64,000 nucleotides of DNA from Puccinia triticina (Eukaryota; Basidiomycota; Pucciniomycetes; Pucciniales; Pucciniaceae), in contig NC_070566.1 in NCBI RefSeq assembly GCF_026914185.1, positions 2,666,001 through 2,730,000 of the forward strand, given 5' to 3'. Numbering within the stretch: the stretch's first letter is position 1; each line of letters opens with the position of its first letter. The position numbers and the translations under genes were made by a program. Below are positions 16,710 to 51,736 of this stretch, piece after piece. The notes below the pieces were generated by a model that was not told the origin of the DNA, ran no database searches, and saw nothing but the letters and a program-made list of their open reading frames with translations.

Positions 16710-17151
16710 CACTGCCAGCATATAAGGCTTGGATGCTTGCATCCCCGTTAATCTGGGGTGCGCGCAACCGATTTAAAATTGGTTGCGCGCATCCGAGGCA
16801 ATCCGCACCCGAGTCAACATCGGGGGACAGCAACCCAAAGGTTTTGCTGTCCGATTCAAAGTCGGCTGCCGGAGCAGCCGAGCCAAAATCAGCATGATGC
16901 CTGACCGATCAATTCAATTCTTCGGTCAGGGGTCAGCCGAGTCAACCTCGGCCGCCACCAACCAAGTAGTGGAAGCTCGGTTGACAGTTCAACCGAGCTT
17001 TCATATGATCGGTCATCCACAACCGATCATATGAAAACTCGGTCGGGGGCCCACCGAGGAAAATGAAAATTGGTGGCTCAATAACCGATGATTTTGAATC
17101 ATCGGTTATTGGCTAATCCGAGGAAACTTTCGCCGGCAGGTTGACCTATCA
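16710..17151. repeat. outer terminal inverted repeat of the giant element, left
   Basis: Matches 51298-51736 in inverted orientation almost base for base. It contains several short internal palindromes, for example AACCGATTTAAAATTGGTT and the ATGATCGGT...ACCGATCAT pair. Confidence 0.9.
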
Positions 17152-17751
17152 AGCTGCTGGCCGAGCAGGTCACCCGGCTGGCCAAGCGGGTTCAGGTACC
17201 TGGTCAGCGAGCAGATCAACCTGCTGGCCAAGCAGGTAAAAGTACCTGCTTGCCGAGCAGAAACAGTTGCAGGTAGCTGCTCCGGCTCAGCCATACCTGC
17301 GCGGCGACGAGCAGGTCTACTCGCCGAGCAGGTACTTCTACCTGCTTGGCCATCAGGATGACCTGCTGGCCGAGCAGGTACAGTTCCATGTACCTGCTCC
17401 GGCTCGGCCAGCAGGTCAACCTGCTGGACAAGCAGGTAACAGCTCAGCAAGCAGGTTAACCTACTCGCCGAGCAGGTTAACCTACTCGCCGAGCAGGTTA
17501 ACCTACTCGCCGAGCAGGTTAACCTACTCGCCGAGCAGGTTAACCTACTCGCCGAGCAGGTACTTTTACCTGCTTGGCCAGAAGGATGACCTGCTCCGGC
17601 GAGCAGGTTGACCTACTCGCAGGTAAAAGCTCGCCGAGCTGGTACATTTACCTGCTTGGCCATCAGGACGACCTGCTCGCCAGCAGCCCCACCTGCTCGG
17701 CGAGCAGCCCAACCTCTGCTCGGCGAGCAGCCCAACCTCTGCTCGGCGAGC
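17152..17751. repeat. subterminal palindromic repeats, left arm
   Basis: Many copies of variants of CAGGTTGACCTGCTGGCC appear in both orientations, with a run of 21-bp units (AGGTTAACCTACTCGCCGAGC) at about 17453-17560. Arrays of short subterminal repeats are typical transposase-binding regions in CACTA elements. The open frames here are by-products of the repeats. Confidence 0.75.
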
Positions 17752-17756
17752 AGCCC

Positions 17757-18601
17757 TGTGAGAATACAGGACCAGACCCCAACCCGCAGCAACCGCATAG
17801 GAAGCTCGCGCGGCAAGACAAAACCCAAACCCAAACCCCAGCTGCTAAGAAAGGTAAGCTTTAAGCCCCTTTCGCAGTCCCAGACCTAACCCAGATCCCA
17901 GACCAAAAGCTAACTGTATCGCTCCGTTGATTGCAGCACCCAAACCTTCATCGGCAGCCACCCCGGCCAAAGCCAAGACAAAGCCAGCGCTAAAGTTCAA
18001 AACCCTGTACGTCCCGAGATAAGATCGCAGCACTTCTAGCAAGGCTGACTCAATCTTGTTCTTTAAACAGAACACTCGCAGAACGACTCGGCAACAAACC
18101 AAAAGACACCCTCCTAGACAGGATCACAAACGGTCTAACGACTGGTAAGTGATCCAACGTCCTCAGACCATAGACATACAAAAAGAAAGTACAACAGCTG
18201 ACTTGAACAAACTTTGTTTGTCAAGCAGACCAAAACAGCACGACAGAGCTCTGCCGCAGGGACAAAACAAAGATCCTAAACTAGCTTCGTCCCGTACTCG
18301 TGAGTTGGAGACCAGACAAGAAAAACAGAAGAGACGTGCGTTCTCATTGCTAACCAATATGGCTGCATGAACCACAGTTAGTTTCCATAACTAAACCTAT
18401 CAGCGAATCCGCACGGAGTTCGTCAAGCTACCACATCCTTGTCTCCCCAGTCAATCCCAGCAACAACTCGAGTCCGCCTCAAGTTGCTTTCAGGTACTAC
18501 ATGCGCAGACCTTCTTGTTTTACATTATAAGTTGTCTCAAGATTTTAGTTGTACTAGTTTCTGATTGGAATAAATCCTTTTCAGTTGCTCCAATTTTTTC
18601 A
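17757..18601 (+). repeat. 5' LTR of the copia element, containing exon-intron-like structure
   Basis: 845 bp, TG...CA. It contains three GT-AG segments (17854-17936, 18007-18070, 18145-18228) separating short open exons that keep one frame. See the matching 3' LTR, where this frame continues from pol. Confidence 0.9.
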
Positions 18602-18615
18602 GATTTACAGTCTCG
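18602..18615 (+). other. primer-binding site complementary to a tRNA-Tyr anticodon arm
   Basis: GATTTACAGTCTCG directly follows the LTR with no spacer. Its complement, CGAGACTGTAAATC, is the anticodon stem-loop of a GTA (Tyr) tRNA ending at nucleotide 40. It does not match a tRNA 3' CCA end. This implies priming by a 5' tRNA half, as known for Drosophila copia with initiator tRNA-Met. Confidence 0.7.
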
Positions 18616-18651
18616 GTTCGCTCAATTTGATCCCCGACCAAGCAACTCGAA

Positions 18652-21600
18652 ATGGCGAACACCAGGAACCAAGGACCAGCCAGCTCCAGCAATAAGGCAC
18701 CCGCATCCCAGAAGAATGACACCTACAGTCCCGACAAGGACCACGTCAACGTGCCTAAATTTGACGGCACCAACTTCCCACTCTGGGAACAAAAAATCAA
18801 AATGCATCTACACCCAAGACGCCTGGAGTCCTACATCAAGGAACCGTTATCAAAAGAACCAGACGATGACAAGCTACAGGGCGCTCTTTGTACCTGTAGC
18901 ATACTAAGTGAAGCCATCTCTAATGCCATCTTCACCAGCGTTATCAATGACGCAAACAAGCAAGACCCCTACGCCATCTGCAACAACATTAAAACCATCT
19001 ACGCCTCGGACTCGCTGCTCTCCGTATTCCAGGTTTGGAATAAGTGGCTCAACATCCAGTATAATAAAGATCTGAACACCTACATTGTCAAGATGGAGGA
19101 AAGTCTAGCCGAATTCAGCTCCCTCGGCCTGAAGGTTCCCGACGAGCTCGTTGGATGCAGAATCGTCGGAAAAATCACCAAAAGACGACCCATGTTGATG
19201 CAGGCCTTATTTGCCAACCTTAAAGCCCTGGCAAAGCCCAAGGAAATTATAGCCAAGCTGAGAGACATTGGCCGTCACAAGACGGCAACAAAGCGCAAGT
19301 TCGTGGAAGACTCAGACCCCTCTCCAACAGCCTTGGCCACTGGACCTAGCCGCAGACCGAAAAAGCCTGCTCATTCGATCATCCGCTGCAGCGGCGGAAA
19401 GCACAACCCTAAAGCTACGACGCACACGGAAGAGAATTGCTGGACAATTCACCCATCTACTCGACCACCTGAAAGACCGCTCGCAGACCAAGGTCGCCCT
19501 GAGAAAAAGCAGCGTACCAACTACCACACAACAGCGGAGGATGAAGAGGAAGAAGCACACCACACCATTGCCCGGCCTTCCTTCACATACAACACAACCA
19601 CACCTGCCAAGCCATTATCGACCATCCTTGACTCGGGAGCGAGCAATCATATGCTCAACTCCCTGCGATACTTCACCAATACCACCCCAGTACACATCAG
19701 TATAGTGACAGGGAGTGGCAAATCCAAGCTTGTGGCTGTGGCGCGCGGCACCGCCAGGATTCACCTGCCTTCAGGCGACCATCTCACTCTCCCAGACGCC
19801 CTTTACGTCCCCAACTTGACGCGGAACCTAGTCTCTATGATGCAACTATTGAACCATCAAGCCACCATACGCGAGAAGGACGGAGCATTCGAGGTTAGGA
19901 TAGATCACAACAGGCCATTCCGGGTTGACATCTCTAACGACCTGCTGGAAATAATCGACGCCAAGCCCTCCTCATCCATGGCAACAAGCTTATCAACCAT
20001 GATTGCGCCAGAACTCTCCACCTTCCAGAAATGGCACAATCGCCTCGGCCACGCCAGCTCAGGGCGCATCGCGCACGCCGTGGACAAGAAGCTATCTCTG
20101 GAGAAGACCCATGCTTGCTCGGCCTGCATGCAGGGGAAGCTCACCCGAGTGCCATGCAACGGATCCTTCAAACCGGCAGATGCTCTGCTGGCCGTTGTGC
20201 ACGCTGACTTAGTCGGACCAATCTCGCCTCCGACGAACGGCGGAGCTAGATATTTCCTTACGCTGGTTGATCAGTTCACGGGACTCATCCACACTGCCAT
20301 CCTCAAGGAGAAAAGCCAGGCAGCTCGAGCTATACTGGACTTCCAAACCTTTTACGAGAAGCAAACCGGCCATCACCTGAAGAAACTAATCTCTGACGGA
20401 GGCGGAGAATTCGTCAACGGCACCCTTGGAGAACACCTCAAATCCAAAGGGATAAAACACAACGTAGCCCCGGCCTACACGCCACAAAACAACGGCCTGG
20501 CTGAGAGGGCCAACCGCACCGTCATCGATATGACCCGTTGCCTGATGATGCAGGCTAACCTAGCACCCGAGTGGTGGGCCGAAGCGGTCCAAATGGCAAC
20601 TTCGACAACCAACTGCCTACCCTCCCTCGGAAAAAGCAAAACTTGCCCGCTGGAACTAATGTTCAAGATCAAGCCAAACATTCATTTCTTCCAACCGTTC
20701 GGATGCCGAGTTTGGATCGTCAAGCCTAAACAGAAGCGAGACACTAAATTCTTGGCAATCTCATGGGAAGGCATCCTTCTCGGCTACAAGAATGATTACT
20801 CCTCGTACAAAGTCTTGCGGCTTGAAGACAAGGCTATCATGACATCAAAGCACGTGCAGTTCGACAAGAACTCATTCCCGGATTGCCCATCCCTCAACAA
20901 AAGCTACACACCGATTGGATCAAACAAACTACCTTCTTTCAAGTTCAACGACCCGCTGCCCTTCGCAGAGGAAGAAGCTGTACCTGGCGAGTTGCAACAG
21001 GAATTTGTCGCTGAACTGGAACAGGAGGAGCAAGATTTCAACCGGATCACCCAACATCTCCGCAAAAACAGCCCAGCCAACTCGACAGCTCCCCCCGATG
21101 CCCCTGCCCTACCAGACTCAACAGACTCACCCCAGCCAGCAGGGCGGCGATACACATGGACGACAGCCCCCCCACCCAAGGAGATCTCAAGCGGAATAGA
21201 CCCCAGCAACATAGTCTCCGGCAAGCGCTCTCGACAGGTGTACCTCATTGAGATTGAAGTTGATCCTAAGAACCATAGACAAGCAATGAGCAGCAAAGAC
21301 CGGGACCACTGGACTCAAGCTGAACAGAAGGAGATTGCCAACATGCTCAAGCATGAAGTCTGGACGGTTCAAGCAAGAATGCACTCCGACAAGCCTATCC
21401 CGTCCACCTGGGCTTACAGGAGAAAGCTTGGCCCAGCCAACGAGGTAATAGAGTTCAAGGCCCGGATCTGTGCGCAAGGCTTCCGGCAAGTGCACGGCAG
21501 GAACTTTAACATTATCTACGCCCCAACGGGAAAGGCCGCCTCGCTCCGACTGCTCATTTCCTTTGCTGTAAACAACAGCCTGAAGATCCATCAGCTGGAC

Positions 21601-22959
21601 GTCAGAAGCGCGTTTTTAACGTGCCCCCTGGAGGAAACGGTAACGCTACTCCCGCCACAGGGGTACGAATGCCCGCCCAACTCTGTCCTTCACCTCAAGA
21701 AGGCTATCTACGGGCTGCGTCAAGCCCCACTTGTATGGTACAAGAGATTGACAGCTTATCTGACTACCCTCGGCTTCCGAATCTCTGTATCCGATCCCTG
21801 CGTTTTCTGGAGAAAGGAGGAGAGCAGTAGGCCAGCCACATGGCTGTTCGCTCACGTGGACGACATAGTCATCGTCAGTCGAGCCCCTGAGGTCTTCAAG
21901 GCCGAAATGGAAAAGGAATTCGATATAAAGTACCCTGGGGAGGCGGAATTTTTGCTAGGAATGAACATCGATCGATTCAAAGGTGGACTTCAAATAAACC
22001 AAACTCAATACATTGAACGGAAGCTAGCCGAATTCAACCTCGAGCGCGAGCACCCAGCCTCCTGTCCCCTCAACCCCAGGGACCGGCTCTCAAAAGCCAC
22101 TGCGCAAGAAATTGAATCCTTCAACAAGCTTAATGTTAACTACCGCGGACTGATCGGCTCCCTCAACTACTTAAGCATCCTCACAAGGCCCGACATCTCA
22201 TTCGCGGTAAGCCAGATTTCTCAATACCTGGAGAGCCCGGGCATTCGGCAATACCAAGCAGCAGTTCAAGTCTTCAGATACCTATCCGGTACCCGTCATG
22301 TTGGGCTCACCTTCAAGCGCTCCGACAATACTCAGCTGAAGGCATTCTCCGACGCCGACTGGGGCAACTGCCCTGACACCAGGCGCTCAACCACCGGGTT
22401 CGTAGTCACCGTTGGCAATCACCTTCTCAACTGGAAATCCAGCAAGCAACCGACGGTCTCCCTATCAACTGCGGAGGCGGAATATAAATCTCTGTCCGAC
22501 TTGGGCAGGGACCTGGCCTGGTTCGCTAGCCTGATCCAAGAGGTCGAGCTGCAGAAGAACGTACAAGACATCGAGGTCGCCGTAGATAACAAAGGGGCAA
22601 TTGACCTAGCAAACAGCGAGACATTGCAGAACAGTTTTAGGACGAAGCACATGAATATCAGGCTTCATTTCGTCCGAGAGCTCATTCTCTTTCGACTCAT
22701 CAAGCTCCACTATGTCAAGACCTCACTTAACGCGGCCGACTTCCTCACAAAATCTCTGGGGAGATCAGTCATCCGTTGTTCCCTTGCGCAATTGAGTGTG
22801 ACGCAAATCTCTGATGTTGCTTCGAATCTCACGACTCGTCGCATGCGAGGCTGTGAGAATACAGGACCAGACCCCAACCCGCAGCAACCACATAGGAAGC
22901 TCGCGCGGCAAGACAAAACCCAAACCCAAACCCCAGCTGCTAAGAAAGGTAAGCTTTAA
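18652..22959 (+). CDS. Ty1/copia Gag-Pol polyprotein, intact
   Basis: 1435 residues in copia order. Gag has a UBN2-like N-terminus (VPKFDGTNFPLWEQKI) and a Cys/His knuckle-like segment (CSGGKHNP...CW). The aspartic protease is LDSGASNHM (about 19628). The GAG-pre-integrase zinc region follows (WHNRLGH...CSACMQGK, about 20033-20140). The integrase acidic residues lie in VHADLVGP, SDGGGEF and NNGLAERANRT. Reverse transcriptase shows QLDVRSAFLTCPL and the active site AHVDD (about 21853), in place of the usual YVDD. RNase H shows DADWGN and STAEAEY. The gene makes virus-like-particle protein and the enzymes for retrotransposition. The last ~35 residues are encoded by the 3' LTR, and the stop at 22957-22959 lies inside a predicted intron donor region. 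Confidence 0.95.
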   Translation: MANTRNQGPASSSNKAPASQKNDTYSPDKDHVNVPKFDGTNFPLWEQKIKMHLHPRRLESYIKEPLSKEPDDDKLQGALCTCSILSEAISNAIFTSVINDANKQDPYAICNNIKTIYASDSLLSVFQVWNKWLNIQYNKDLNTYIVKMEESLAEFSSLGLKVPDELVGCRIVGKITKRRPMLMQALFANLKALAKPKEIIAKLRDIGRHKTATKRKFVEDSDPSPTALATGPSRRPKKPAHSIIRCSGGKHNPKATTHTEENCWTIHPSTRPPERPLADQGRPEKKQRTNYHTTAEDEEEEAHHTIARPSFTYNTTTPAKPLSTILDSGASNHMLNSLRYFTNTTPVHISIVTGSGKSKLVAVARGTARIHLPSGDHLTLPDALYVPNLTRNLVSMMQLLNHQATIREKDGAFEVRIDHNRPFRVDISNDLLEIIDAKPSSSMATSLSTMIAPELSTFQKWHNRLGHASSGRIAHAVDKKLSLEKTHACSACMQGKLTRVPCNGSFKPADALLAVVHADLVGPISPPTNGGARYFLTLVDQFTGLIHTAILKEKSQAARAILDFQTFYEKQTGHHLKKLISDGGGEFVNGTLGEHLKSKGIKHNVAPAYTPQNNGLAERANRTVIDMTRCLMMQANLAPEWWAEAVQMATSTTNCLPSLGKSKTCPLELMFKIKPNIHFFQPFGCRVWIVKPKQKRDTKFLAISWEGILLGYKNDYSSYKVLRLEDKAIMTSKHVQFDKNSFPDCPSLNKSYTPIGSNKLPSFKFNDPLPFAEEEAVPGELQQEFVAELEQEEQDFNRITQHLRKNSPANSTAPPDAPALPDSTDSPQPAGRRYTWTTAPPPKEISSGIDPSNIVSGKRSRQVYLIEIEVDPKNHRQAMSSKDRDHWTQAEQKEIANMLKHEVWTVQARMHSDKPIPSTWAYRRKLGPANEVIEFKARICAQGFRQVHGRNFNIIYAPTGKAASLRLLISFAVNNSLKIHQLDVRSAFLTCPLEETVTLLPPQGYECPPNSVLHLKKAIYGLRQAPLVWYKRLTAYLTTLGFRISVSDPCVFWRKEESSRPATWLFAHVDDIVIVSRAPEVFKAEMEKEFDIKYPGEAEFLLGMNIDRFKGGLQINQTQYIERKLAEFNLEREHPASCPLNPRDRLSKATAQEIESFNKLNVNYRGLIGSLNYLSILTRPDISFAVSQISQYLESPGIRQYQAAVQVFRYLSGTRHVGLTFKRSDNTQLKAFSDADWGNCPDTRRSTTGFVVTVGNHLLNWKSSKQPTVSLSTAEAEYKSLSDLGRDLAWFASLIQEVELQKNVQDIEVAVDNKGAIDLANSETLQNSFRTKHMNIRLHFVRELILFRLIKLHYVKTSLNAADFLTKSLGRSVIRCSLAQLSVTQISDVASNLTTRRMRGCENTGPDPNPQQPHRKLARQDKTQTQTPAAKKGKL

Positions 22960-23696
22960 GCCCCTTTCGCAGTCCCAGACCTCACCCAGATCCCAGACCA
23001 AAAGCTAACTGTATCGCTCCGTTGATTGCAGCACCCAAACCTTCATCGGCAGCCACCCCGGCCAAAGCCAAGACAAAGCCAGCGCTAAAGTTCAAAACCC
23101 TGTACGTCCCGAGATAAGATCGCAGCACTTCTAGCAAGGCTGACTCAATCTTGTTCTTTAAACAGAACACTTGCAGAACGACTCGGCAACAAACCAAAAG
23201 ACACCCTCCTAGACAGGATCACAAACGGTCTAACGACTGGTAAGTGATCCAACGTCCTCAGACCATAGACATACAAAAAGAAAGTACAACAGCTGACTTG
23301 AACAAACTTTGTTTGTCAAGCAGACCAAAACAGCACGACAGAGCTCTGCCGCAGGGACAAAACAAAGATCCTAAACTAGCTTCGTCCCGTACTCGTGAGT
23401 GGGAGACCAGACAAGAAAAACAGAAGAGACGTGCGTTCTCATTGCTAACCAATATGGCTGCATGAACCACAGTTAGTTTCCATAACTAAACCTATCAGCG
23501 AATCCGCACGGAGTTCGTCAAGCTACCACATCCTTGTCTCCCCAGTCAATCCCAGCAACAACTCGAGTCCGCCTCAAGTTGCTTTCAGGTACTACATGCG
23601 CAGACTTTCTTGTTTTACATTATAAGTTGTCTCGAGATTTTAGTTGTACTAGTTTCTGATTGGAATAAATCCTTTTCAGTAGCTCCAATTTTTTCA
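22852..23696 (+). repeat. 3' LTR of the copia element; spliceable extension of the polyprotein
   Basis: The polyprotein frame enters the LTR and meets a stop right after a GTAAGC donor (22949). Removing GT-AG segments 22949-23031, 23102-23165 and 23240-23323 keeps one frame through exons 23032-23101 (APKPSSAATPAKAKTKPALK), 23166-23239 (TLAERLGNKPKDTLLDRI) and 23324 to about 23380. Splicing would therefore give a longer C-terminus. The exon sequence may derive from a captured host gene. Confidence 0.75.
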
Positions 23697-23701: not shown

Positions 23702-24142
23702 AACCTGCTCCGCGAGCAGCATGTCCCTGACCTGCTCCGCGAGCAGGTCAAGCTGCTGGCCGAACAGGTCAACCGGCTGGCCAAGCAGGTACTTGTGCCC
23801 GCTTCGAAGCCGCTACAGGTACCTGCTCGTCGAAAGCACCTGCTTGGCGAGCAGGTCAAATCGCTGGACAAGCAGGTTGGCGAAGCGGGTACAAGTATGT
23901 ACCTGCTCCCTGCTGGCCAAGCGGGTAAACTACAGGTACCTGCTCGGCCAGCAGGACCTGTACTCGCGAGCCCAGCAGGCCAACCTGCTGGCCGAGCAGG
24001 TATTTGTATGTACCCGCTTTGGCAGGAGGTCAACCTGCTGGCCGAGCAAGTTAACGTGCAAGCCAAGCAGGTAAAATTACTGCTTGGCGAGGTGGTCAAA
24101 CTGCTGGCTGAGCACATCAACCGCTGCTTGGAAAGCAGGCCA
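23702..24142. repeat. subterminal palindromic repeats, left arm (continued after the copia)
   Basis: Same CAGGT...ACCTG-type repeats as 17152-17751. Inverted counterpart at about 50916-51297. Confidence 0.75.
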
Positions 24143-24936
24143 AACTGCTGTCCCAGCAGGCCAATCTGTTGTCCCAGCAGGCCAATCTGCTGTCCCAGCA
24201 GGCCAATCTGCTGTCCCAGCAGGCCAATCTACTGTCCCAGCAGGCCAATCTGCTGTCCCAGCAGGCCAATCTGCTGTCCCAGCAGGCCAATCTGCTGTCC
24301 CAGCAGGCCAATCTACTGTCCCAGCAGGCCAATCTGCTGTCCCAGCAGGCCAATCTGCTGTCCCAGCAGGCCAATCTGCTGTCCCAGCAGGCCAATCTGC
24401 TGTCCCAGCAGGCCAATCTGCTGTCCCAGCAGGCCAATCTGCTGTCCCAGCAGGCCAATCTGCTGTCCCAGCAGGCCAATCTGCTGTCCCAGCAGGCCAA
24501 TCTGCTGTCCCAGCAGGCCAATCTGCTGTCCCAGCAGGCCAATCTGCTGTCCCAGCAGGCCAATCTGCTGTCCCAGCAGGCCAATCTGCTGTCCCAGCAG
24601 GCCAATCTGCTGTCCCAGCAGGCCAATCTGCTGTCCCAGCAGGCCAATCTGCTGTCCCAGCAGGCCAATCTGCTGTCCCAGCAGGCCAATCTGCTGTCCC
24701 AGCAGGCCAATCTGCTGTCCCAGCAGGCCAATCTGCTGTCCCAGCAGGCCAATCTGCTGTCCCAGCAGGCCAATCTGCTGTCCCAGCAGGCCAATCTGCT
24801 GTCCCAGCAGGCCAATCTGCTGTCCCAGCAGGCCAATCTGCTGTCCCAGCAGGCCAATCTGCTGTCCCAGCAGGCCAATCTGCTGTCCCAGAAGGCCAAT
24901 CTGCTGTCCCAGCAGGCCAATCTGCTGTCCCAGCAG
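24143..24936. repeat. 21-bp minisatellite, about 38 copies (left arm)
   Basis: The unit is CTGTCCCAGCAGGCCAATCTG, nearly invariant. Because 21 is a multiple of three and the unit lacks stops, five long frames run through it on both strands. These are not genes. The inverted counterpart at about 50800-50905 has only five copies. Confidence 0.95.
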
Positions 24937-25958
24937 GCACCAATTCCACTCACTGAGCTGGAGCAGCATTGTATGCGCAGCACAGCGGTGAGCGCAGCCA
25001 TTTTTTTTTGTAAATGCAGCACTGCAGTTAGCCCTGGGCTTCCCTGCAGTGCAGCGGGCGCAAAGAAAGTGTGGAAGCACAGCATGTGGTGGCTTGGCAA
25101 GTTGGGACCACTGCTCTTATTTTGAAGCATTAGCACAATATTTGTGCTTTTCTTGTGCTTTATAGGGGGGATGAGAAGCGCAGGTATGATGCACGCAGCA
25201 GGAACCCGCTTGAGCTGCCGCTTTTTGGGCTGGCTGTAAAGCAGCCCTCCGCTGCGCTTTGCTTAAACTGTGGTTTTTGAAGCAAAGCAAAGAGCATGCA
25301 ACATTTCTTTAGGCACAAGGGCCAGTCTCTTACCTATTCCAATGAGCAAATGCCCTTTGAACATGGCACATCTTAGGGATGCTCATGTTGCATTTTGTAT
25401 CCAACCTCAATTCTTTCTATTCCCCTTCACTCCACTATTCCTACTTGAATTCACATTCCCCTCCTCCTTCTCCCCCAAATTAAACCATTACATGACATCA
25501 ACCCCATCCCTTGAGAGTCTAGTATGACTAATATACATGACTCAGATAGACAATTGATGACAAGTGCAAGATTGCCAATCAGAGTAATGAGATACATATA
25601 TTTATGCAGCCAAAGGAGGCTACAAGTTAGATACCAGTTTTGGATAAGAATGGTCAGTAGATGAAAGTGGATAGAAGGCCAAGAGCAGCAGAATAGGGGT
25701 GGAAGCCCAAGAGGGGAAAGAAGAGAGGCCATTGGATCAATGGTTATGGTGGGCCGCTACGCTACACTAAACTCCAGGGCATCTTAGCATTAATATAGCA
25801 GAGTTAAAAGTGGCCCTGTTTTCCTGTAGTTTTAAACCAAGCTACTGCCACTGTGCTGTGTCATGCTAAGCTAAAGCGTCTTGAGCGGCAAGATAGGTAA
25901 AATTTTGGCCCGGAATTTGCAGGGTGTTGCCACTGCCAGGCATTTGCAGGGCATTGCG
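24937..25958. repeat. inner arm segment, left copy
   Basis: Inverted copy of 48039-49048 at high identity. It includes the GCAAAGCGCAGCGG-type segment and an AT-rich block with no coding motif. Confidence 0.85.
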
Positions 25959-27540: not shown

Positions 27541-27858
27541 GCGGGGACCCGTTACTTTTAGCAGTAACACAGCGGAAACATTGTTGCGCTACCGCTTTTT
27601 CAGCTGGCCGCGTAACAGTCCCCCGCTGCCGGCAAAAAAAGTGCAGCACCGTGCAAAGCACAGCTTTTTTGGAGAGCACTGTGTGACACTGAAAGGAGCA
27701 GCCCCGCCCGCTGCGCTACCGCTTTTTGGGTTGGGGAAATATGGGGGCCCACTATTCCCAGCAGTAGCACAGCGTGACTAGCACTGCGCTACCACTTTTT
27801 GGCCTGACTGTGCAGCAGTCCCCCGCTGCACTGCACTAAATGACTGTTTTTGGATTTG
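27541..27858. repeat. inner arm segment, left copy
   Basis: Inverted copy of about 42625-42939, made of CCGCTTTTTGG and GCGCAGC-type repeats. No gene. Confidence 0.75.
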
Positions 27859-29979: not shown

Positions 29980-30375
29980 AATGCCAGGAATTGCCAGGTA
30001 TTGCTGTGCATTGCCAGGCATTGCTGTGCATCGCCAGGCATTGCTGTGCATCGCCAGGCATTGCTGTGCATCGCCAGGCATTGCTGTGCATCGCCAGGCA
30101 TTGCTGTGCATTGCCAGGCATTGCTGTGCATTTCCAGGCATTGCTGTGCATTGCCAGGCATTGCCGTGCATTGCCAGGCATTGCTGTGCATTGCCAGGTA
30201 TTGCTGTGCATTGCCAGTCATTGCCGTGCATTGCCGTTCATTTCCAGGCATTGACGTGCATTGCTGTGCATTGCCAGGCATTTCCATGAACTGCCAGTTT
30301 CCAGGCACATCCTGCGCCATAGTGAGTCATTTTCCAGGCATTTTCAAGGCATTGTTGTGCATTTTCCAGGCATTG
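29980..30375. repeat. GGCATTGCCA minisatellite, continued
   Basis: Same family and orientation as 27859-29456, separated from it only by MITE copy A. Confidence 0.9.
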
Positions 30376-42343: not shown

Positions 42344-42419
42344 CTTCGGCTCCCTGCAATGAAGCCCCAACTTAGCTCGCTTGTATATTTCCAGCACCTG
42401 AAACTGGCGAGCATCACAC

Positions 42420-42624
42420 TGGCAATGCCTGGAAATGCAATGCCTGGCAAGTTCCTGGCAAATGCCTGGAAATGCACAACAATGCCTGGCAAGTTCCAGG
42501 AAATGCCTGGAAATGCCTGTCCATGCCCAGCAAATGCCTGGAAATGCATGACAATGCATGGCAATGCCTGACAATGCACGGCATGCATGGCAATGCCTGG
42601 AAATGCATGGCAATGCCTGGCAAA
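42420..42624. repeat. minisatellite, reverse orientation
   Basis: GGCAATGCC/CTGGAAATGC units; right-arm counterpart of 27859 onward. Confidence 0.85.
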
Positions 42625-42939
42625 TCAAAAAAGCAGTTATTTAGCGCAGTGCAGCGGGGGACCGCTGCGCAGTCAGCCCAAAAAGTGGTAGTGCAGCGCT
42701 AGTCTGGCTGTGCTACTGCTGGGAATATTGGGCCCCCATATTTCCCCAACCCAAAAAGTGGTAGCGCAGCGGGTGGGGCCACTCCTTTCAGTGTCACACA
42801 GCGCCCTCCAAAAAAGCTGTGCTTTGCACGGCGCTGCACTTTTTTTGCCGGCAGCGGGTGAATGTTACGCGGCCAGCTCAAAAAGTGGTAGCGCAGCAAT
42901 GGTTCCGCTGTTTTACCGCTAAAAGTAACGGGTCCCTGC
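42625..42939. repeat. inner arm segment, right copy
   Basis: Inverted copy of 27541-27858. Confidence 0.75.
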
Positions 42940-43963
42940 TGTGGTAGACGGAAAAGTGAAAAAACAAAAGTTTTTTCTATAATACATATTTAATCAAAAT
43001 ACGCCTCAAGAAAACACCAAAAAGACCTCAGAAATGGATTCTACGGCCAATTTTACCCCTAGTCACAACTGAAAGCATCACTGGAACCCCGCTGGATTGG
43101 AAGTTACACCCTCTTGGACCCTCATGGACACGGCCAGCCCCAGTCATCAACCTGTCACACCCCTCAAGTCACCTTTCCCAGGTATACACATACTCAGACC
43201 CAGCCAAACACATACTGTTGGAATCCGCCAACTCTTCTTTGCGGAATGCCTGCGGTACTCCAAGTCCGTCAATGACGTCACGGCTGAGGAGACTTCAAAT
43301 TGAGAGTTTTTGACCACTTTACTTTGATTCCCCTTCTCCGACCTGATTTCCTTTCCCCATCTCGACAACGTCTCTTAACCTTGGTCATGGTCACCGTCAT
43401 CAAGCCTCAGTACACCGCGGTTCTAGTCGAGATCATCAGTCTAGGCGGCTCTTCTACAGCCTTATAAGTCCTAGTGTGTGTGTGGTGTTAAACAGTGCTC
43501 TATTCTAGTGTTCTCATTTAAACTTGTCCCTGTTTCTTTTAGGTAAAATCTTCTTCTATCTTTGCCATCATTGTTTTTCTATTATTCATTTACTGAAATT
43601 TAGTTTCTTTTAGCCTGAAAATTATCACATACTCTTTTCTATCCATCTTATCTCCACTGCATATGCAGGGGACCAACCCCATTTCTTCTGTATTTGACAT
43701 GTCCCCGCTTCATTTATGCACCCCTTGCAGCTGCATGCAGTCCTCTGACCCCATTTCTGCACTCCTTGCATTATTCTGACACCACTCATGCACCCCTTGC
43801 ATGAGGTACCCCTGTATTTGACATTTCCCCGCCTTGTTTATGCGCTCCTTGCATAATTAGTATCACATCATCTTTCATTTCTCACCCCACTTTTGCCTGT
43901 ATTTAGTATCTTCTGACACCACTTGTACGCAGCCCACCAGCTAAAATCCCTCATCCAGGGTCC
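42940..43963 (+). repeat. solo LTR of the right arm, truncated by E2
   Basis: Inverted counterpart of 26155-27540. It starts TGTGGTAGACGG, is interrupted by a solo LTR at 43216-43627, and is cut at CAGGGTCC by gypsy E2. Confidence 0.75.
43216..43627 (+). repeat. solo LTR, TGTTGGAATC...TTATCA
   Basis: 412 bp flanked by CATAC (43211-43215 and 43628-43632). The left arm near 27055-27075 carries the uninterrupted empty site. The TGTTGGAA start is typical of copia LTRs. Confidence 0.9.
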
Positions 43964-46900
43964 TGTAAGGACCTCTGTTAGGTCCTTTACTGCAGTACAG
44001 TATAGTTGATCCGACGGGATCCAGTGGAGTTTGGGCTAGACAAGACCTTGTGTCTTGGACAGATTTCTAGAACCCAACAGTATAAATTGCACAACTAGCT
44101 CAATAGAGGTGAATCAGCTTTTCTCTCCTGTATATACAAAAGGCAAAGGGAAGTGAGAGGAAAAGGGAAGGAAAAGGATAAGAGGAAGTGAAATGGAAAG
44201 GAAGGAGATGGGAAAGGACATACCTAGCTCAATAGAGGTGAATCAGCCTTTCTCTACTGAGCTAGGTAGGTGCGGAGGCGTCAAGACTAAGTGGAGGTGG
44301 TTGCTGATGTAATCAATCCAGGACTGTTGTGTGATACTCGCGTCGAGGTGATTGGCGCAGGCGTCACAGTCTCCCCCCCTATAAAGAAGGAGAAGTCAAT
44401 GTGTCGGGAGGAGCTGGATCAGGGGGGTCTTCGCCGGGGGGGAAGTTGTAGCGTTTGAGTTTTGAAATGTGGAAAACCGGTTGTTGTTTGTCTCCAGCCG
44501 GAAGGGCTAATTCTGCGTTGAGGCTGTGATTGAAGAACTTTAACACTCGGTAGGGCCCTTCAAACCGTTCTTTCAACTTGTTAACACCTGCTTGATGCTT
44601 TCCTCGCCAGTCAGCTGAGTTCAGTAGTGCCCAGTCATCTGGAAGCAGATTTGGGTCTCTGCCTCGGCGTTTGTTGTGTTGTCTAGCTTGTTTAACCCTG
44701 CTAGTCCACAGTGCATCTCAAGCGTCCACCCATGCGCCTTCGCGCATTTTCAGCCAGGTCGCCAGCGCGGTTGGCGAGTCTTCTGCTGCATCGGTGGAGG
44801 GGAACAGTCCCGGCCGTCGTCCAAAGAGAAGTTCGAACGGGCTATACCCTGTAGCTATATTGACTGCCGAGTTAATGGTGAATTCAACAGATGGCAGTGA
44901 TTCAAGCCATTTGGATTGCCGTTTCGCTGTGAAAGATCTCAGGATTTGGCCCACAGTCTTGTTCGTCCGTTCAATCCGGCCGTCAGCTTGAGGATGGAAG
45001 GACGTTGACATATGGAATTTAATGTTCAGTCGGCCCATCAAAGCCCTCCAAAATCGCGAAGTCCAAGCTTTATCTCTGTCGCTAATGATTGACTTCGGGG
45101 CTCCGAACGTTGCCATCCAGCCGCCGAACAATCTGGCTGCGGTCTTCTCTGCCGAGTCTGATTTCAGGACAGGAATAATTCTCATGAACCCCAAGAGGCG
45201 GCAGGTGCAAGTCAATATCATGTCATAGTGTGCCGAGGACTTCAGCGGTCCCACAAAATTGATGGCTAGGTCTGACAGTGGCAATTTCGGGAAGTTAGGG
45301 GTCGCCATTTTTCCTGCTGGGGCTGTGGTCTGCGCTTTCGTGCGCTGGCAGATTGAGCATGACTGTACAAAACGCAAGATATCAATGGTCATCTTTGGCC
45401 AGAAGAAATCGCGGCGTACTTCTGTGAGCGTCTTCACATGTCCGAGGTGGCCGAGCCTTTGGTGGGCTTCATCAATTAGGAAGCGCCGTAGATCTTTGTC
45501 GACTGGGATCACAAGTCGTCCGTCTACAAAGAGAAAACCATTGATATCTGCATAGTTGTCGTGTAGTGGCATTGTGTCCCTCATAGCTTGGCAGAAGGGA
45601 TCATTTTCATACCCCGCCACTACCGCTTTTTTAATACTATCGGAGAGGGTGGTGGATAGTTCCGTTAGGGCTGCAACGCAGGCCACATCCGCTGGCAAGA
45701 TTTCTTTGTGTTTGGCTGTTAGATCCTTTCTTGATAACGCATCTGCGACCGTGTTGTCTTCTCCTTTAATGTAGTTGAAATGCAAATCAAAATTGGCCAT
45801 CAATTCAGTCCATCTTGCTTGACGTTTACTGAGATTTCGCTGTTTAGGAAGGTGAATCAAGGAATGATGGTCGGACATGACATTCACCTTCATTCCTAGT
45901 AACAACATTTTCCACTTTTGTAACGCATGGATGACGGCGAGAAGTTCCTGCTCATGGACCGGATAGTTCCGTTCAGCCGACGTCATCTGATGGGACTCAT
46001 AGGCAATGGGAGAGGCGCCCTTCCAATCCTCACCTTGGAACAGGGCTGCGCCCAACCCGGATCCGCTGGCGTCTGTGAATAACCAAAGCGGGTCGTCGGA
46101 CTTGTAATCCACATTTTTGAGGCATGGCAGTGAAGTCATAATTTTCTTGATGTTTGCGAAGGCCTGCTCTTCCCTTTCGCCCCATCGGAATTCTTTTGGG
46201 TTGAGTTTTGTGCTGGTGAGAGGGTTCAGGGTGCCAATGTATTTCTGGAGGCCCCAGACAAATTTCTTCATCCATTGCATGGTTCACAGGAATCGTTTTA
46301 CACCCTTGGGGGACCGTGGGGAAGGCCAGTTCTGTACGGATTTGATCTTCTCATCATCTGGTTGAATCCCGTTGGCCTAAATCCAATGGCCGAGAAATTT
46401 CACCTTGTTTCGGAAGAGGAAGGTCTTTTTAGGGGAACAATAGAGGTTGGCGGCTCTGATGCGTTCCAGGACCGCTCGGACGTGTACTGCATGTTCGTCG
46501 GGAGACTGAGAGTAGACCACGATATTGTCCAGGTAAACCACACAGAATCTATTGATGAGGTCACCAAGAGCTTCTTCCAATCGGGCTTGATGAGTCGCCG
46601 GCGCATTAGTAAGTCCCATGGGCATGACACACCATTCCATCAGGCCCCATGGTGTCTTCACGGCTGTCAAGGGAATATCTGCTTCGCGCATTCTTGTCTG
46701 AAAGAACGCGTTGGTTTGGTCAATGATGGAGAAAATCTTCCATGTCGCCACTATTCGCACTAGCTCATCAACATTTGGCAGTGGGGCTCAATCCTTCACC
46801 GTCAAGCTGTTCAATCGGCGGTAGTTGCAGACCCACCGGGGCAAGGCGTCCGGGTCTTTTTTGGGAATAATCAGACTTGGGGATGCGTATTGGCTGGATG

Positions 46901-48038
46901 ACCGGCGAATTCGACCGGCTTCTAAGTGTTGTTCCAGGAGTCTTCGCCAAGCCGCCAGATACTTGTGGGGGTAGGGATACTGTTTCTCGTTGATTACAAC
47001 ATTTGGGTTGGTTAAAATTATCCGGTGGCGCACCCTCAAGCTCTCATTCTGCAGTTTCGAGGGGAAGGAGCCATCCGTGAAGAGACCTGCCTCTTCGGCT
47101 TCGTCGGATACTGCGGGTATGTCCGGAGGGAAGAGGTCCTCAAACTCCTTAAGGATCTTTTTTTCAGGGTTGTGTTCAGGGGAAAGGGGTAGTGGGGTTG
47201 TGGAGGCGACGGAAGCCAGTGGGTCCGTCCTGAAGTCGTGAATAAGGATGTTGGTCCGTTGACATTGTAGCGCTCTCCTTTTGCTGAAAACGGCCAAGTC
47301 GAACCGGTGGAGGAACAGCATGCCGAGGATCATGTCGTAATCCCCGTCGATGCAGCCTATCCTCAGTGGGACATTTTCAAATGTTAGGCCTGATCCAGCG
47401 TCCTCTAGGGTGGCCGAGACGAAGTGCCGAATGATCACACGGTCTGAGGAGTTCCCGTGGAGCGCCAGTTGGACTCCAATTGGCCGTGTCAATGGTTCCT
47501 TTTTTAGTTTGGCGGCATCCACGGTATGCGTCTTGATCAGGTCCAGTTCGGACCCTGTGTCTATCATCGCGCGTACTGGCCGTCCATTCAGTTGCAATTT
47601 GATGATCAGTCGGGCCGGCAGTGCCGGTGAGGGAGGGGGGACCATCGTCGAAGACAATAGCCGGGTTCAAGAAAAAAAAAGTGTAAGGACCTCTTTTAGG
47701 TCCTTCACTGCAGTACAGTATAGCTGATCCGACGGGATCCAGTGGAGTTTGGGCTAGACAAGACCTTGTGTCTTGGAGAGATTTCTAGAACCCAACAGTA
47801 TAAATTGCACAACTAGCTCAATAGAGGTGAATTAGCTTTTCTCTCCGGTATATACAAAAGGCAAAGGGAAATGAGAGGAAAAGGGAAGGAAAAGGATAAG
47901 AGGAAGTGAAATGGAAAGGAAGGAGATGGGAAAGGACATACCTAGCTCAATAGAGGTGAATCAGCTTTTCTCTACTGAGCTAGGTAGGTGCGGAGGCGTC
48001 GAGACTAAGTGGAGGTGGTTGCTGATGTAATCAATCCA
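43964..48038 (-). mobile_element. Ty3/gypsy element E2, gag-less
   Basis: Two 357-bp LTRs (43964-44320 and 47682-48038); on the minus strand they start TGGATTGATT and end CCTTACA. By eye they differ at about ten positions (about 97% identity). Only about 25 bp separate the 5' LTR from the protease frame, so gag and the primer site are missing. Flanks GGTCC and ATGCC do not match. Confidence 0.88.
44379..47657 (-). pseudogene. gypsy E2 pol (protease, RT, RNase H, integrase), four stops
   Basis: Single minus-strand frame without frameshifts. It begins with an aspartic protease (IDTGSELDLI, about 47570) and a linker with EKQYPYPHKYL. Reverse transcriptase follows (WVCNYRRLNSLTVKD; VMPMGLTNAPATHQ; active site YLDN, about 46530), then RNase H (LFTDASGSGLGAALFQ, about 46080), an integrase zinc module (HQRLGH...CSICQRTK), the integrase core (ISDRDKAW; PQADGRIERTNK) and a C-terminal barrel (KERFEGPYRVLKFF). 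In-frame stops are at 46788-46790, 46377-46379, 46284-46286 and 44718-44720. The RT box reads YLDN, not YxDD, a further defect. There is no chromodomain. Confidence 0.88.
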
Positions 48039-49048
48039 ATGCCCTGCAAATGCCTGGCCAGTGGCAACACCCTGCAAATTCCAGGGCCAAAAATTTACCT
48101 ATCTTGCCGCTCAAGACGCTTTAGCTTAGCATGACACAGCACAGTGGCAGTAGCTTGGTTTAAAACTACAGGAAAACAGGGCCACTTTTAACTCTGCTAT
48201 GTTAATGCTAAGATGCCCTGGAGTTTAGTGTAGCGTAGCGGCCCACCATAACCATTGATCCAATGGCCTCTCTTCTTTCCCCTCTTGGGCTTCCACCCCT
48301 ATTCTGCTGCTCTTGGCCTTCTATCCACTTTCATCTACTGACCATTCTTATCCAAAACTGGTATCTAACTTGTAGCCTCCTTTGGCTGCATAAATATATG
48401 TATCTCATTACTCTGATTGGCACTCTTGCACTTGTCATCAATTGTCTATCTGAGTCATGTATATTAGTCATACTAGACTCTCAAGGGATGGGGTTGATGT
48501 CATGTAATGGTTTAATTTGGGGGAGAAGGAGGAGGGGAATGTGAATTCAAGTAGGCATAGTGGAGTGAAGGGGAATAGAAAGAATTGAGGTTGGATACAA
48601 AATGCAACATGAGCATCCCTAAGATGTGCCATGTTCAAAGGGCATTTGCTCATTGGCATAGGTAAGAGACTAGCCCTTGTGCCTAAATAAATGTTGCATG
48701 CTCTTTGCTTTGCTTCAAAAACCACAGTTTAAGCAAAGCGCAGCGGAGGGCTGCTTTACAGCCAGCCCAAAAAGCGGCAGCTCAAGCGAATTCCTGCTGC
48801 GTGCATCATACCTGCGCTTCTCATCCCCCCTATAAAGCACAAGAAAAGCACAAATATTGTGCTAATGCTTCAAAATAAGAGCAGTGGTCCCAACTTGCCA
48901 AGCCACCACATGCTGTGCTTCCACACTTTCTTTGCGCCCGCTGCACTGCAGGGAAGCCCAGGGCTAACCGCAGTGCTGCATTTACAACAAAAAAATGGCT
49001 GCGCTCACCGCTGTGCTGCGCATACAATGCTGCTCCAGCTCAGTGAGT
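48039..49048. repeat. inner arm segment, right copy
   Basis: Inverted copy of 24937-25958. Confidence 0.85.
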
Positions 49049-50785
49049 GGAATTGGTACTTCTGGCCTGTTTTTCTCAGACTTTGTCTAGAAATATTGGA
49101 TATTGTATCAGCTCCTATCTAAACATCAATCATTGAGATACATCACACTGTTTGACTTTGGCACATGTTGTGAAGGAATCCAGTTAGAAAATCTAAAGAA
49201 ATCCAGGCCTAGCCCTTTTCCCCTTCTTTCTTTTATCTATGCACGCTCAAGATGCACTTTATTACAATATCCTCACCCAATACATGCTCAATAGGTTCTT
49301 GGTCAAATGTTTTCTTGCTTTTATCTCCTGCCCTCCCCCCAGAATTGTTTCCTTCCCCTGTTATCCCTGCTATCTTTCTTTCAAACTAAAACGCACTGCA
49401 CTGCTGCTTCACAATATCCACTCACGAAATAAGTACAATGAGACCGCTGCAAAGCCGCTTTTCTCAGCCTAAAGCGCTCCTTTTTGCACTACATGTAGCG
49501 CGCTTCGCGCTGTGACAGCGCTGATTCAGTGTGCTGCAAGACACCTAAATATGCCACTGACTCACAAAGCTGAAGCAGAAGTAGGCCTTGAAAACAACTG
49601 AAGATTTTGTTAAGCTGATGTTACATTTCCAGCAGCAAAATGCCATACAAGCAACGGTGGGCCACTATGCTACGCTATTTCAGCGCTACACGTTAGCATA
49701 GCGGCAAAAAGCGCCCGCCAATTTGGAATAGTGTTAGCTCGCTGCTAGCGCTGCTACGCTGCGCTAATTTTCAGCGGTGCTCACAGCGCACCAATTCTTT
49801 GTTAGCGTTAGCGCGCCGCTACAGTCGCTTTTAGCGGACAAAAGGCCTTTTTTCCGCTAAAAGCGCTGTAGCACAGCGTAGCGCGCGCTTCTTTGCGCCC
49901 TGCGTGTGTAACATTAGCGCAATTGCGCGCATCTGCGCTAACACTACACTAACAGCTAATTTAGCTGCGCACCCTGTGCGCGTAGCATTAGTGCAGATGT
50001 GTGCAATTGCGCTAACGCTACGCTAAAAAATAGTGCATTTGTGCTGTGCTACACTACACTAACCGCTATGGTTAGCGTAGCAGCCCACCGTTGATACAAG
50101 CCTACAAGGATTACCAAATGGCGGCAGAATAAATGGCTGGTTGAGAGGAAATGGTGCTCCTCAAAACTGAACCTAGGTAATTACCCACTCCCACTCCACA
50201 CTTGATGTCTAATCATATTGATTTACAGCAATTCTGTACAATGGAGATCTCTTGCCATGCTTCCAGGAGTTTGAATTTGGGATGGAAGGGTTTTGATTAG
50301 ACATGGTGGGTCCTTGCAGGAACAGCAAAGGAGGGGAGGGGGTCTGACCCGTCCGCTAGTGAGAGCTTGGCAAGTGGGGCAATGACTGTTGCACTGACCA
50401 AGGTTGCTGTTGGTTTGGATAGAGATCAAAAATCCGCAGAGTGCAGTGACAGGAAAACTGCTCATACCACTGTGTTACAGCGGTTAATGCCAGAAATGCT
50501 GGCAACTCCGTGTAAATGTGGGGCAGTCCGCAGCAATGCCTTTCAATACCTGGCAAATATCTGGCAATTTTATTTTCCTCTCTCTCATCTCCTTGCGTCA
50601 GCCTCCCACAATTGGCATCTTAGCTCACAGCTGCATACTGGTGTTTCTCATGTCCTGCAAGAAAAAAACCATGCTTGAAAGTTCTATTAGTGAGTTTTTC
50701 CATGTTTTGGTCCATCTCTATAGATCTTACACAATGGAAAGATAAATTGACTCAATTGGGCCAGCAGGTTGACCTGCTGGGATGG
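49049..50785. other. right-arm segment absent from the left arm
   Basis: At 49048 the match to the left arm stops and it resumes at the 21-bp array. The 1.7 kb between has no coding motif and contains the hAT-like MITE at 49652-50092. Confidence 0.6.
49652..50092. mobile_element. hAT-like MITE, CAACGGTGGGC family, copy D
   Basis: Ends CAACGGTGGGCC and GGGCTGC...-type complement GCAGCCCACCGTT are flanked by CATACAAG (49644-49651) and GATACAAG (50093-50100). The TAGCG-rich interior is like copy A. Confidence 0.72.
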
Positions 50786-50799
50786 GCCAGCAGGTTGAC

Positions 50800-50905
50800 C
50801 TGCTGGGACAGCAGATTGGCCTGCTGGGACAGCAGATTGGCCTTCTGGGACAGCAGATTGGCCTGCTGGGACAGCAGATTGGCCTGCTGGGACAGCAGTT
50901 TGGCC
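50800..50905. repeat. 21-bp minisatellite, five copies (right arm)
   Basis: Inverted counterpart of the roughly 38-copy array at 24143-24936. The single variant unit (GAAGG for GCAGG) is third from the same end in both arms. Confidence 0.92.
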
Positions 50906-51297
50906 TGCTTTCCAAGCAGCGGTTGATGTGCTCAGCCAGCAGTTTGACCAGCTCGCCAAGCAGTAATTTTACCTGCTTGGCTTGCACGTTAACTTGCTCG
51001 GCCAGCAGGTTGACCTCCTGCCAAAGCGGGTACATACAAATACCTGCTCGGCCAGCAGGTTGGCCTGCTGGGCTCGCGAGTACAGGTCCTGCTGGCCGAG
51101 CCGGTACCTGTAGTTTACCCGCTTGGCCAGCAGGGAGCAGGTACATACTTGTACCCGCTTCGCCAACCTGCTTGTCCAGCGATTTGACCTGCTCGCCAAG
51201 CAGGTGCTTTCGACGAGCAGGTACCTGTAGCGGCTTCGAAGCGGGCACAAGTACATGCTCGGCCAGCCGGTTGACCTGCTCGGCCAGCAGCTTGATA
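50906..51297. repeat. subterminal palindromic repeats, right arm
   Basis: Inverted counterpart of 23702-24142 and the inner part of 17152-17751. About 0.6 kb of repeats present on the left is missing here. Confidence 0.75.
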
Positions 51298-51736
51298 GGT
51301 TAACCTGCTGGCGAAAGTTTCCTCAACGGATTAGCCAACAACCGATGATTCAAAATCATCGGTTATTGAGCCACCAATTTTCATTTTCCTCGATGGGCCC
51401 CCGACCGAGTTTTCATATGATCGGTTGTGGATGACCGATCATATGAAAGCTCGGTTGAACTGTCAACCGAGCTTCCACTACTTGGTTGGTGGCGGCCAAG
51501 GTTGACTCGGCTGACCCCTGACCGAAGAATTGAATTGATTGGTCAGGCATCATGCTGATTTTGGCTCGGCTGCGGAGCAGCCGACTTTGAATCGGACAGC
51601 AAAACCTTCGGGTTGCTGTCCCCCGATGTTGACTCGGGTGCGGATTGCCTCGGATGCGCGCAACCAATTTTAAATCGGTTGCGCGCACCCCAGATTAACG
51701 GGGATGCACGCATCCAAGCCTTATATGCTGGCAGTG
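51298..51736. repeat. outer terminal inverted repeat of the giant element, right
   Basis: Ends GCTGGCAGTG at 51736, directly followed by the CCT duplication. About 97-98% identical to 16710-17151. Confidence 0.9.

What the first reader, a model, noticed from the sequence alone, without database searches (positions are those of the whole stretch)
16710..51736. A 35-kb palindromic element with CACTG ends and a 3-bp target duplication, inserted as one unit
Both outer ends are complementary (CACTGCCAGCATATAAGG). CCT is duplicated on each side. Deleting the insertion restores a gypsy LTR collinear with its partner at 61416-62193. The arms run, with interruptions, for well over 10 kb and carry subterminal CAGGT-ACCTG palindromes and minisatellites. 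CACTA-superfamily elements have such ends and duplications but are rarely tens of kilobases of inverted repeat without a transposase. This may be an undescribed class of giant foldback transposon.
Basis: partly seen in the sequence, partly recalled or inferred. Interest (0 to 1): 0.92.

Follow-up and report, generated by a model that had tools for sequence, protein, structure and literature searches.

The report
Giant coding-poor fold-back CACTA-like transposons
The 35-kb stretch is a real jumping element, one of a family of very large inverted-repeat transposons in this genome; two relatives look like mirror-image dimers of a smaller element that went on to jump as one piece.

Summary
The insertion is real. 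Window 16710-51736 has 478-480 bp terminal inverted repeats (96.5% identical), a CCT duplication, and interrupts an LTR that is whole at 61416-62193. It is not unique: two more copies on other contigs match it at 93-99.8% in successive blocks over nearly the whole length, with their own 3-bp duplications and unrelated flanks. Pairing 84 related ends gives 32 convergent pairs of 5-91 kb (random mean 2.2); 28 of 32 have an exact 3-bp duplication. The arms are shorter than claimed: six collinear blocks, 3.2 kb aligned. No transposase was found inside. Ends, duplication size and subterminal repeats fit a non-autonomous CACTA/EnSpm-like family moved in trans, but no transposase-coding partner with these ends was found. 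New here: two 26-27 kb relatives look like mirror-image dimers of a 14.5-kb monomer. Both have 3-bp duplications and share one centre, so one dimerisation was probably followed by transposition of the dimer. This suggests how the window element's palindromic interior arose; that step is inferred.

The parts
16710..51736 (.). giant CACTA-like element E1 (35,027 bp)
   Evidence: end motif, CCT duplication, restored LTR; near-full-length copies on contigs C12 and C5
16707..16709 (.). target-site duplication CCT, left
51737..51739 (.). target-site duplication CCT, right
16710..17187 (+). left terminal inverted repeat
   Evidence: 96.5% to 51257-51736 inverted
51257..51736 (-). right terminal inverted repeat
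17162..17753 (.). subterminal cluster of CTGCTCG/CGAGCAG palindromes
   Evidence: 19 motif positions listed here; tandem units
17756..23696 (+). nested Copia element: LTRs 17756-18601 and 22851-23696 (99.2%), open polyprotein frame 18631-22956, duplication AGCCC
   Evidence: a single LTR at the same site in copy E2
23748..24281 (+). arm block b, left
   Evidence: 96.7% to 50757-51295 inverted
50757..51295 (-). arm block b, right
24134..24938 (.). 21-bp minisatellite, 38 units (right-arm counterpart 50783-50909, 6 units)
24939..25956 (+). arm block c, left; 76-90% relatives inside G-type elements
48037..49057 (-). arm block c, right (98.7%)
26731..27065 (+). arm block d, left (98.2% to 43626-43963)
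43626..43963 (-). arm block d, right
27058..27277 (+). arm block e, left (95.0% to 42997-43216)
42997..43216 (-). arm block e, right
27478..28062 (+). arm block f, left (87.1% to 42419-43002)
42419..43002 (-). arm block f, right
27856..29456 (.). 10/20-bp minisatellite TTGCCAGGCA (also 29990-30282, 34874-35087, 36548-36661, 37558-38352, 42438-42625)
43964..48038 (-). nested, broken gypsy element with LTRs 43964-44320 and 47682-48038 (97.5%), lying between right-arm blocks d and c
   Evidence: same spacing of blocks c and d in all three copies
16044..16707 (.). left part of the interrupted host LTR
   Evidence: 95.2% to 61416-62065
51737..51866 (.). right part of the interrupted host LTR
   Evidence: 97.7% to 62064-62193

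Best explanation
The window element is a non-autonomous, CACTA/EnSpm-like cut-and-paste transposon of about 30 kb (35 kb with its Copia insert). A transposase supplied in trans recognises the CACTGCCAGCAT ends, probably helped by the many CTGCTCG-CGAGCAG sites just inside them, and moves the whole block, making a 3-bp duplication. Shown: end motif, 3-bp duplications, near-identical copies at unlinked sites that share their nested retroelements, clustering of the palindromic motif at the ends. Inferred: the transposase type, that it acts in trans, and the role of the motif. The fold-back interior most likely arose because the two ends are long inverted repeats. After a break or excision, repair invades the wrong (inverted) end and copies the interior a second time in mirror orientation. 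Relatives look like the stages: both ends of one type (C15, C5), mirror-image dimers of a 14.5-kb monomer (C13, C5) that then transposed, and in F3 copying that ran outward into the flanking DNA. That E1 itself is an old, decayed product of this process is inferred.
For: Ends and duplication. Family: 32 convergent pairs from 84 listed ends against a random mean of 2.2, maximum 7 in 1000 trials; 3-bp duplications in 28 of 32. E1, E2, E3 collinear over nearly the whole length, blocks c and d around the gypsy insert equally spaced, 500-bp flanks unlike each other; Copia in E1 and E3, a single LTR of it in E2. Palindromic motif within 2 kb of an end: 23 of 31 in E1, 44 of 49 in F1, 46 of 61 in G1; 6 in 29 kb of window outside the element. 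Dimers: C13:349663-376910 holds two 6,701-bp matches reported as 100% to the 14.5-kb element G1, in opposite orientation; C5:1411483-1437659 holds two such matches of a 1,401-bp probe; duplications TGG and GAG; centres alike, 96.6% over 1,974 bp. F3: flanks inverted and 99.8% identical over the 1 kb compared, mirror-symmetric to the base at an LTR 9.3 kb out on each side. Block c was found once in G1 and twice, mirrored, in each of E1, E2 and E3.
Against: No element was found that has these ends and codes for a transposase: scored hits to the CACTA transposase family (PF02992) lie inside only 2 of 32 pairs. The one in E4 has a different palindromic motif on both sides, so looks nested; the other (C5:6864420) lies in the long insertion that splits a G-type monomer. 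Four pairs lack an exact 3-bp duplication. In E1 no end-like sequence was found in 24939-48036, and arm divergence is uneven (0.9-8.6%; chi-square 64.9), so one clean dimerisation does not explain E1; blocks d and e also resemble a repeat at a locus that is not one of the giants. E1 has block c in the opposite arm orientation to the C13 and C5 dimers. The C5 dimer rests on one interior probe, the end pieces and the centre, because the 6.7-kb probe listed no full-length interior match there (39 of 1594 candidates scored).
Confidence: 0.75

Rival explanations
1. E1 moves itself: an autonomous giant with an intron-split or unknown transposase in its unassigned interior.
For: Several kilobases of the interior (for example 30.3-34.5 and 38.4-42.4 kb) have no assignment; genes may be split by introns, and only ten frames were scanned.
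Against: Seven non-retroelement frames gave no Pfam match. In the translated comparison of F1 frames (positions 2.7-16.2 kb) with E1, the part of the output that was not cut showed only subterminal and minisatellite sequence in common.
Confidence: 0.1
2. The mirrored interior of E1 is not a duplication: the same dispersed repeats inserted in both halves in opposite orientation.
For: Blocks d and e match L039, a locus that is not one of the giants, at 90-93%; uneven arm divergence.
Against: Six blocks lie in the same nested order on both sides. Matches to block c of 94% or more were all in E1-E4 or 4 kb inside an E-type end at C9:3746625 (40 of 163 candidates scored), and its G-type relative is mirrored in the C13 and C5 dimers.
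Confidence: 0.25
3. Another superfamily with 3-bp duplications (for example PIF/Harbinger) rather than CACTA.
For: 3-bp duplications are not unique to CACTA (canonical Harbinger has 3 bp, PMC12730594 passage); no CACTA transposase is tied to these ends.
Against: CACTG ends and subterminal repeats; EnSpm in rusts is described with CAC..GTG ends and 3-bp duplications (PMC12730594, passages).
Confidence: 0.1
4. Assembly artefact or segmental duplication.
For: Large palindromes are prone to misassembly; F3 flanks are mirrored, and E2 has a 349-bp inverted copy of its left flank beyond its right end (95.7%).
Against: Exact 3-bp duplications at 28 of 32 sites and interrupted LTR restored; three E copies on three contigs whose flanks do not resemble each other.
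Confidence: 0.04

Closest known systems
CACTA/EnSpm superfamily; EnSpm of rusts (PMC12730594, passages read)
   Same: CAC..GTG ends, 3-bp duplications (passages); subterminal repeats (soybean Tgmt*, PMC2613891, abstract)
   Different: No transposase found; half of the 32 pairs exceed 35 kb, against a 20.5-kb coding soybean element (PMC2613891, abstract) and 16-20 kb red-algal ones (PMC6431247, passage)
Galileo / Foldback elements of Drosophila (PMC3573991, passages read)
   Same: Long ends with tandem repeats; extension of the ends by copying the interior in inverted orientation is proposed there by the same logic
   Different: P superfamily, 7-bp target sequences; longest ends 1.26 kb in the passage read; here 26-27 kb dimers that appear to have transposed
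double Ds of maize (recalled; no paper read for it)
   Same: Inverted dimer of a TIR element
   Different: hAT superfamily, one element inserted in another, few kb (recalled)
Starship, Maverick/Polinton and other giant transposons (recalled; review PMC6431247, passages)
   Same: Tens of kilobases mobile as one unit
   Different: Those carry their own recombinase or integrase and genes; duplication size differs (recalled)

Membership tests
CACTA/EnSpm | Ends begin CACTA or CACTG, inverted | tested here: met
   CACTG at both ends of 32 of 32 pairs; the pairs were found by this motif
CACTA/EnSpm | 3-bp target-site duplication | tested here: met
   28 of 32 pairs exact
CACTA/EnSpm | Subterminal short repeats in both orientations | tested here: met
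   CTGCTCG/CGAGCAG concentrated within 2 kb of the ends in 3 of 3 long elements examined (E1, F1, G1); the fourth (C14, 5.2 kb) is too short to tell
CACTA/EnSpm | TNP2-type transposase in a family member with the same ends | tested here: inconclusive
   PF02992 hits inside 2 of 32 pairs only, both apparently within nested sequence; 150 of 179 candidates scored and end lists incomplete
Foldback / Galileo | Long TIRs with tandem repeats | tested here: met
   1.2-2 kb repeat-containing ends in F1, F2, G1
Foldback / Galileo | 7-9 bp target-site duplication | tested here: not met
   3 bp; 7 bp for Galileo from PMC3573991, 9 bp for FB recalled
Starship | Tyrosine-recombinase captain gene at one end, no TIRs | tested here: not met
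   TIRs present; a captain gene was not searched for; definition recalled
Maverick/Polinton | 6-bp duplication, polymerase and integrase genes | tested here: not met
   3-bp duplication; apart from the nested retroelements no such gene among ten frames; definition recalled

The most novel reading that the evidence does not exclude
A self-enlarging class of transposon: TIR elements whose long, repeat-filled ends make repair copy the element onto itself in mirror image, giving 26-35 kb palindromic transposons that stay mobile and go on to transpose with their nested cargo. The minisatellites inside would be expanded transposase-binding sites.
Probability: 0.35. Interest if true: 0.78.

Novelty: new variant of a known kind. 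Interest (0 to 1): 0.62.

Why it matters
Cut-and-paste transposons are commonly held to lose mobility as they grow (general knowledge, no call). Here precise 3-bp duplications at 28 of 32 pairs with a median length of 35.5 kb, and near-identical E copies that share whole nested retroelements, show that coding-poor elements of about 30 kb kept inserting; for some other pairs part of the length was added by later nesting. The two mirror-image dimers with a shared centre suggest a route from a 14-kb monomer to a 27-kb palindrome, and that the product can still insert. That makes the origin of fold-back elements testable by comparing haplotypes or isolates. The 32 pairs span 1.13 Mb, so they also matter for genome size, assembly and annotation.

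Tried and rejected
Searched the genome for an autonomous partner with Plavaka, TNP2 and KDZ profiles: 29, 150 and 185 matches (for KDZ not all listed), none tied to these ends; only 2 of 32 pairs contain a scored TNP2 hit. The ATTTGG end subfamily (623 ends, 100 listed) looked like a candidate carrier, but the one locus fetched holds a 216-bp MITE with its own duplication TCT. Other ends pair at 198, 216, 216 and 241 bp (read by eye), and of the 151 TNP2/Plavaka places entered one lies within 15 kb of the 100 listed ends. I therefore set aside the 43 rows of that subfamily before pairing ends. A look for further subfamilies gave 45 places, mostly with MITE-like ends.

The resemblance of the minisatellite unit to the end motif is weak: 6 of 2000 shuffles reach it with the first 12 bases, 79 of 2000 with 23; chosen after the fact.

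Ongoing gene conversion between the E1 arms since the copies spread was tested and is not supported for the right arm. Right-arm differences between copies (0-0.5%) are below the left-right differences within a copy (0.6-8.6%); left arms differ by 0-2.1% between copies, in the terminal repeat as much as left from right.

The random control used a nominal length for contigs whose length I did not have. One search gave an output that was cut.
Full report
WHAT WAS CHECKED. The two ends are complementary: 16710-17187 pairs with 51257-51736 at 96.5%. CCT stands on both sides. The left flank aligns to 61416-62065 and the right flank to 62064-62193, so the two flanks meet in one LTR collinear with the partner LTR. 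The arms were overstated. Apart from minisatellites, six inverted blocks lie in mirrored order, 3.2 kb in all, over 11.4 kb on the left and 9.3 kb on the right.

THE GENOME. The window is C9:2666001-2730000 of a 122.8-Mb genome in 18 contigs. Size and contig number fit a Puccinia triticina haplotype (121.6-123.9 Mb in PMC12210899, passages read; 18 chromosomes recalled).

THE FAMILY. A search with the first 442 bases gave 96 matches (lower bound; 40 of 414 candidates scored), many as convergent pairs. Two are close copies. E2 (C12:2637655-2673681) matches in blocks of 94-99.8%, with duplication TTA. E3 (C5:5267584-5305491) matches in main blocks of 93-99.4%, with duplication CAA, and its left end is split by about 2.7 kb. 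These figures leave out extra cross-matches of 83-88% between minisatellite arrays. The 500-bp flanks of E1, E2 and E3 do not resemble each other. A fourth, E4 (C2:1941162-1994010, AAA), matches only in part. The 26-bp end pattern with up to 3 mismatches matched 106 + 110 times, with 0 for the reversed control (100 rows listed). After setting aside 43 rows of a MITE subfamily and adding the fully listed G-type search, 84 ends remained. Of neighbouring ends within 120 kb, 32 are convergent pairs of 5.2-90.5 kb and 9 have other orientations. Random placement gave a mean of 2.2 and a maximum of 7 in 1000 trials, with approximate contig lengths. The median pair length is 35.5 kb.

TARGET-SITE DUPLICATIONS. 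All 32 pairs were read at both ends. Ten were read (9 exact), twenty (18 exact), and two (1 exact; the left end of C3:7171294 is). The total is 28 of 32. The binomial chance at 1/64 is 9e-47. Misses: C7:1248296, C9:4311430, C18:3082382 and F3 (C12:1648269). At E4 the sequence is a run of A, so its match is weak evidence.

WHAT IS INSIDE E1. A Copia element lies at 17756-23696, with LTRs 99.2% identical (7 of 846 differ) and AGCCC on both sides. E2 holds a single LTR at that site, so Copia was there before the copies separated. A broken gypsy element lies at 43964-48038, with LTRs 97.5% identical (9 of 357 differ), precisely between right-arm blocks d and c. Blocks c and d are the same distance apart in all three copies. 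The element therefore spread with its nested passengers. Ten frames were scanned with Pfam: three are retroelement proteins, and seven have no match at E up to 1. Listed hits of Plavaka, TNP2 and KDZ do not fall inside E1 (150 of 179 TNP2 and 150 of 350 KDZ candidates were scored, and the KDZ list was cut).

AGE ORDER. Between copies the right arms differ by 0-0.5% (0 of 984 for E1-E3 in block c) and the left arms by 0-2.1%. Left against right within a copy is 0.6-8.6%. So, judged by the right arm, the mirrored structure is older than the spread of the copies and has not been evened out since; the left arms diverge more, and for the terminal repeat as much as left from right. Arm divergence is uneven between blocks (chi-square 64.9, 5 d.f., E1 values): e and f are older, or b to d were evened out earlier. 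The outer four blocks (30 of 2090) do not differ significantly from the gypsy LTR pair (9 of 357, Fisher 0.16) or the Copia LTR pair (7 of 846, Fisher 0.21).

LARGE RELATIVES AND THEIR CORES. F1, F2 and F3 (16.3-17.1 kb) are 98-99.8% identical over most of their length and 91-94% near the ends. F5 (43.2 kb) is an F1-like core at 92-98% with extra sequence in it. The 90.5-kb pair on C5 is a G-type monomer split by a long insertion. So part of the size is nesting. Long ends: 1.2-1.35 kb in F1 and F2, about 2 kb in G1. The motif CTGCTCG/CGAGCAG is concentrated there.

MIRROR-IMAGE DIMERS. G1 (C2:6738162-6752650) is a 14.5-kb monomer (AAC duplication). A 6,701-bp probe from it matches C13:354450-361150 on one strand and C13:364787-371487 on the other, both at a reported 100%, inside the 27.2-kb pair C13:349663-376910. 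A 1,401-bp probe does the same in C5:1411483-1437659; the longer probe listed no full-length match there (39 of 1594 candidates scored). The outer subterminal pieces at all four dimer ends are of the 'right' type at 99%. The fetched C13 centre (2.4 kb) holds no CACTGC; the C5 centre (2.5 kb) holds one CACTGC near its far edge, away from the join. The join lies within subterminal and 42-bp repeat sequence. The two centres align in the same orientation at 96.6% over 1,974 bp across the join. Duplications are TGG and GAG. One dimerisation followed by transposition explains this best.

OUTWARD COPYING. F3 has no duplication. Its flanks are inverted copies of each other: 99.8% over the 1 kb compared, and continuous with end repeats that are also 99.8% alike, against 93-94% in F1 and F2. 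A flank probe finds mirrored LTR partners at 1639008 and 1673797 (99%), whose midpoint equals the midpoint of F3 exactly. Repair that copied outward from one end would do this; misassembly is the alternative.

MECHANISM. Shown: insertion as units. Inferred: an EnSpm-type transposase in trans, and enlargement by repair that uses the wrong, inverted end as template. The same logic was proposed for Galileo end extension (PMC3573991, Discussion passages), on a scale of hundreds of bases. For E1 the inference rests on block c: found once in the monomer and mirrored in E1, E2 and E3. Against it, E1 has the opposite arm orientation to the dimers, no end remnant was found in 24939-48036, and divergence is uneven.

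KNOWN OR NEW. Rust EnSpm elements with CAC..GTG ends and 3-bp duplications are in print (PMC12730594, passages), and CACTA is listed among rust TIR superfamilies (PMC12210899, passage). My searches (listings, plus passages or an abstract of five papers) showed no giant or palindromic member in rusts, but cover only the open-licence library, and supplements were not readable. I rate it a new variant of a known kind.

Noticed in passing
G000 C2:4924760-4924975 (L039) and 623 ends genome-wide: A MITE of about 0.2 kb with ends CACTGCCAGCATATTTGGCTGGGATG, whose first 76 bp are about 80% like the giant element: apparently one clan spanning 0.2 to 90 kb.
   Followed up: partly
G000 C7 (two), C11, C12, C14, C15, C2 pairs of 44-54 kb: Seven of the eleven pairs of 43-54 kb (read by eye) hold an 86-87% relative of one LTR 8.8-10.2 kb inside one end: perhaps a further giant lineage that spread with a nested retroelement.
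   Followed up: no
C3:1963897, 1973632, 1983367: Three MITE-type ends spaced exactly 9,735 bp on one strand: probably a tandem array.
   Followed up: no
C5:660613 and C2:6752650: KDZ transposase hits begin about 415 bp outside an end of this clan at both places.
   Followed up: no
window 16710-51736: The left half of E1 differs more from E2 and E3 (about 1%) than the right half (mostly under 0.7%) outside minisatellites; unexplained.
   Followed up: partly
L015 652-1000 and L018 (right flank of E2): The left flank of E2 has a 349-bp inverted copy (95.7%) starting 151 bp beyond the right end, although E2 has a TTA duplication.
   Followed up: partly
window 4395-5468 and 59233-60117: Two shorter inverted repeats (461 columns 97%; 290 columns 93%), perhaps small TIR elements.
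   Followed up: no
L041 6928-7877: Another end pair CACTGCAAGAAAAACTCTAGAAAC about 950 bp apart: perhaps a second CACTG-ended family.
   Followed up: no
L040: A TNP2 gene region inside E4 with palindromic TGTACGCGCGTACA motifs on both sides: perhaps a different CACTA-type element with its own subterminal palindromes.
   Followed up: partly
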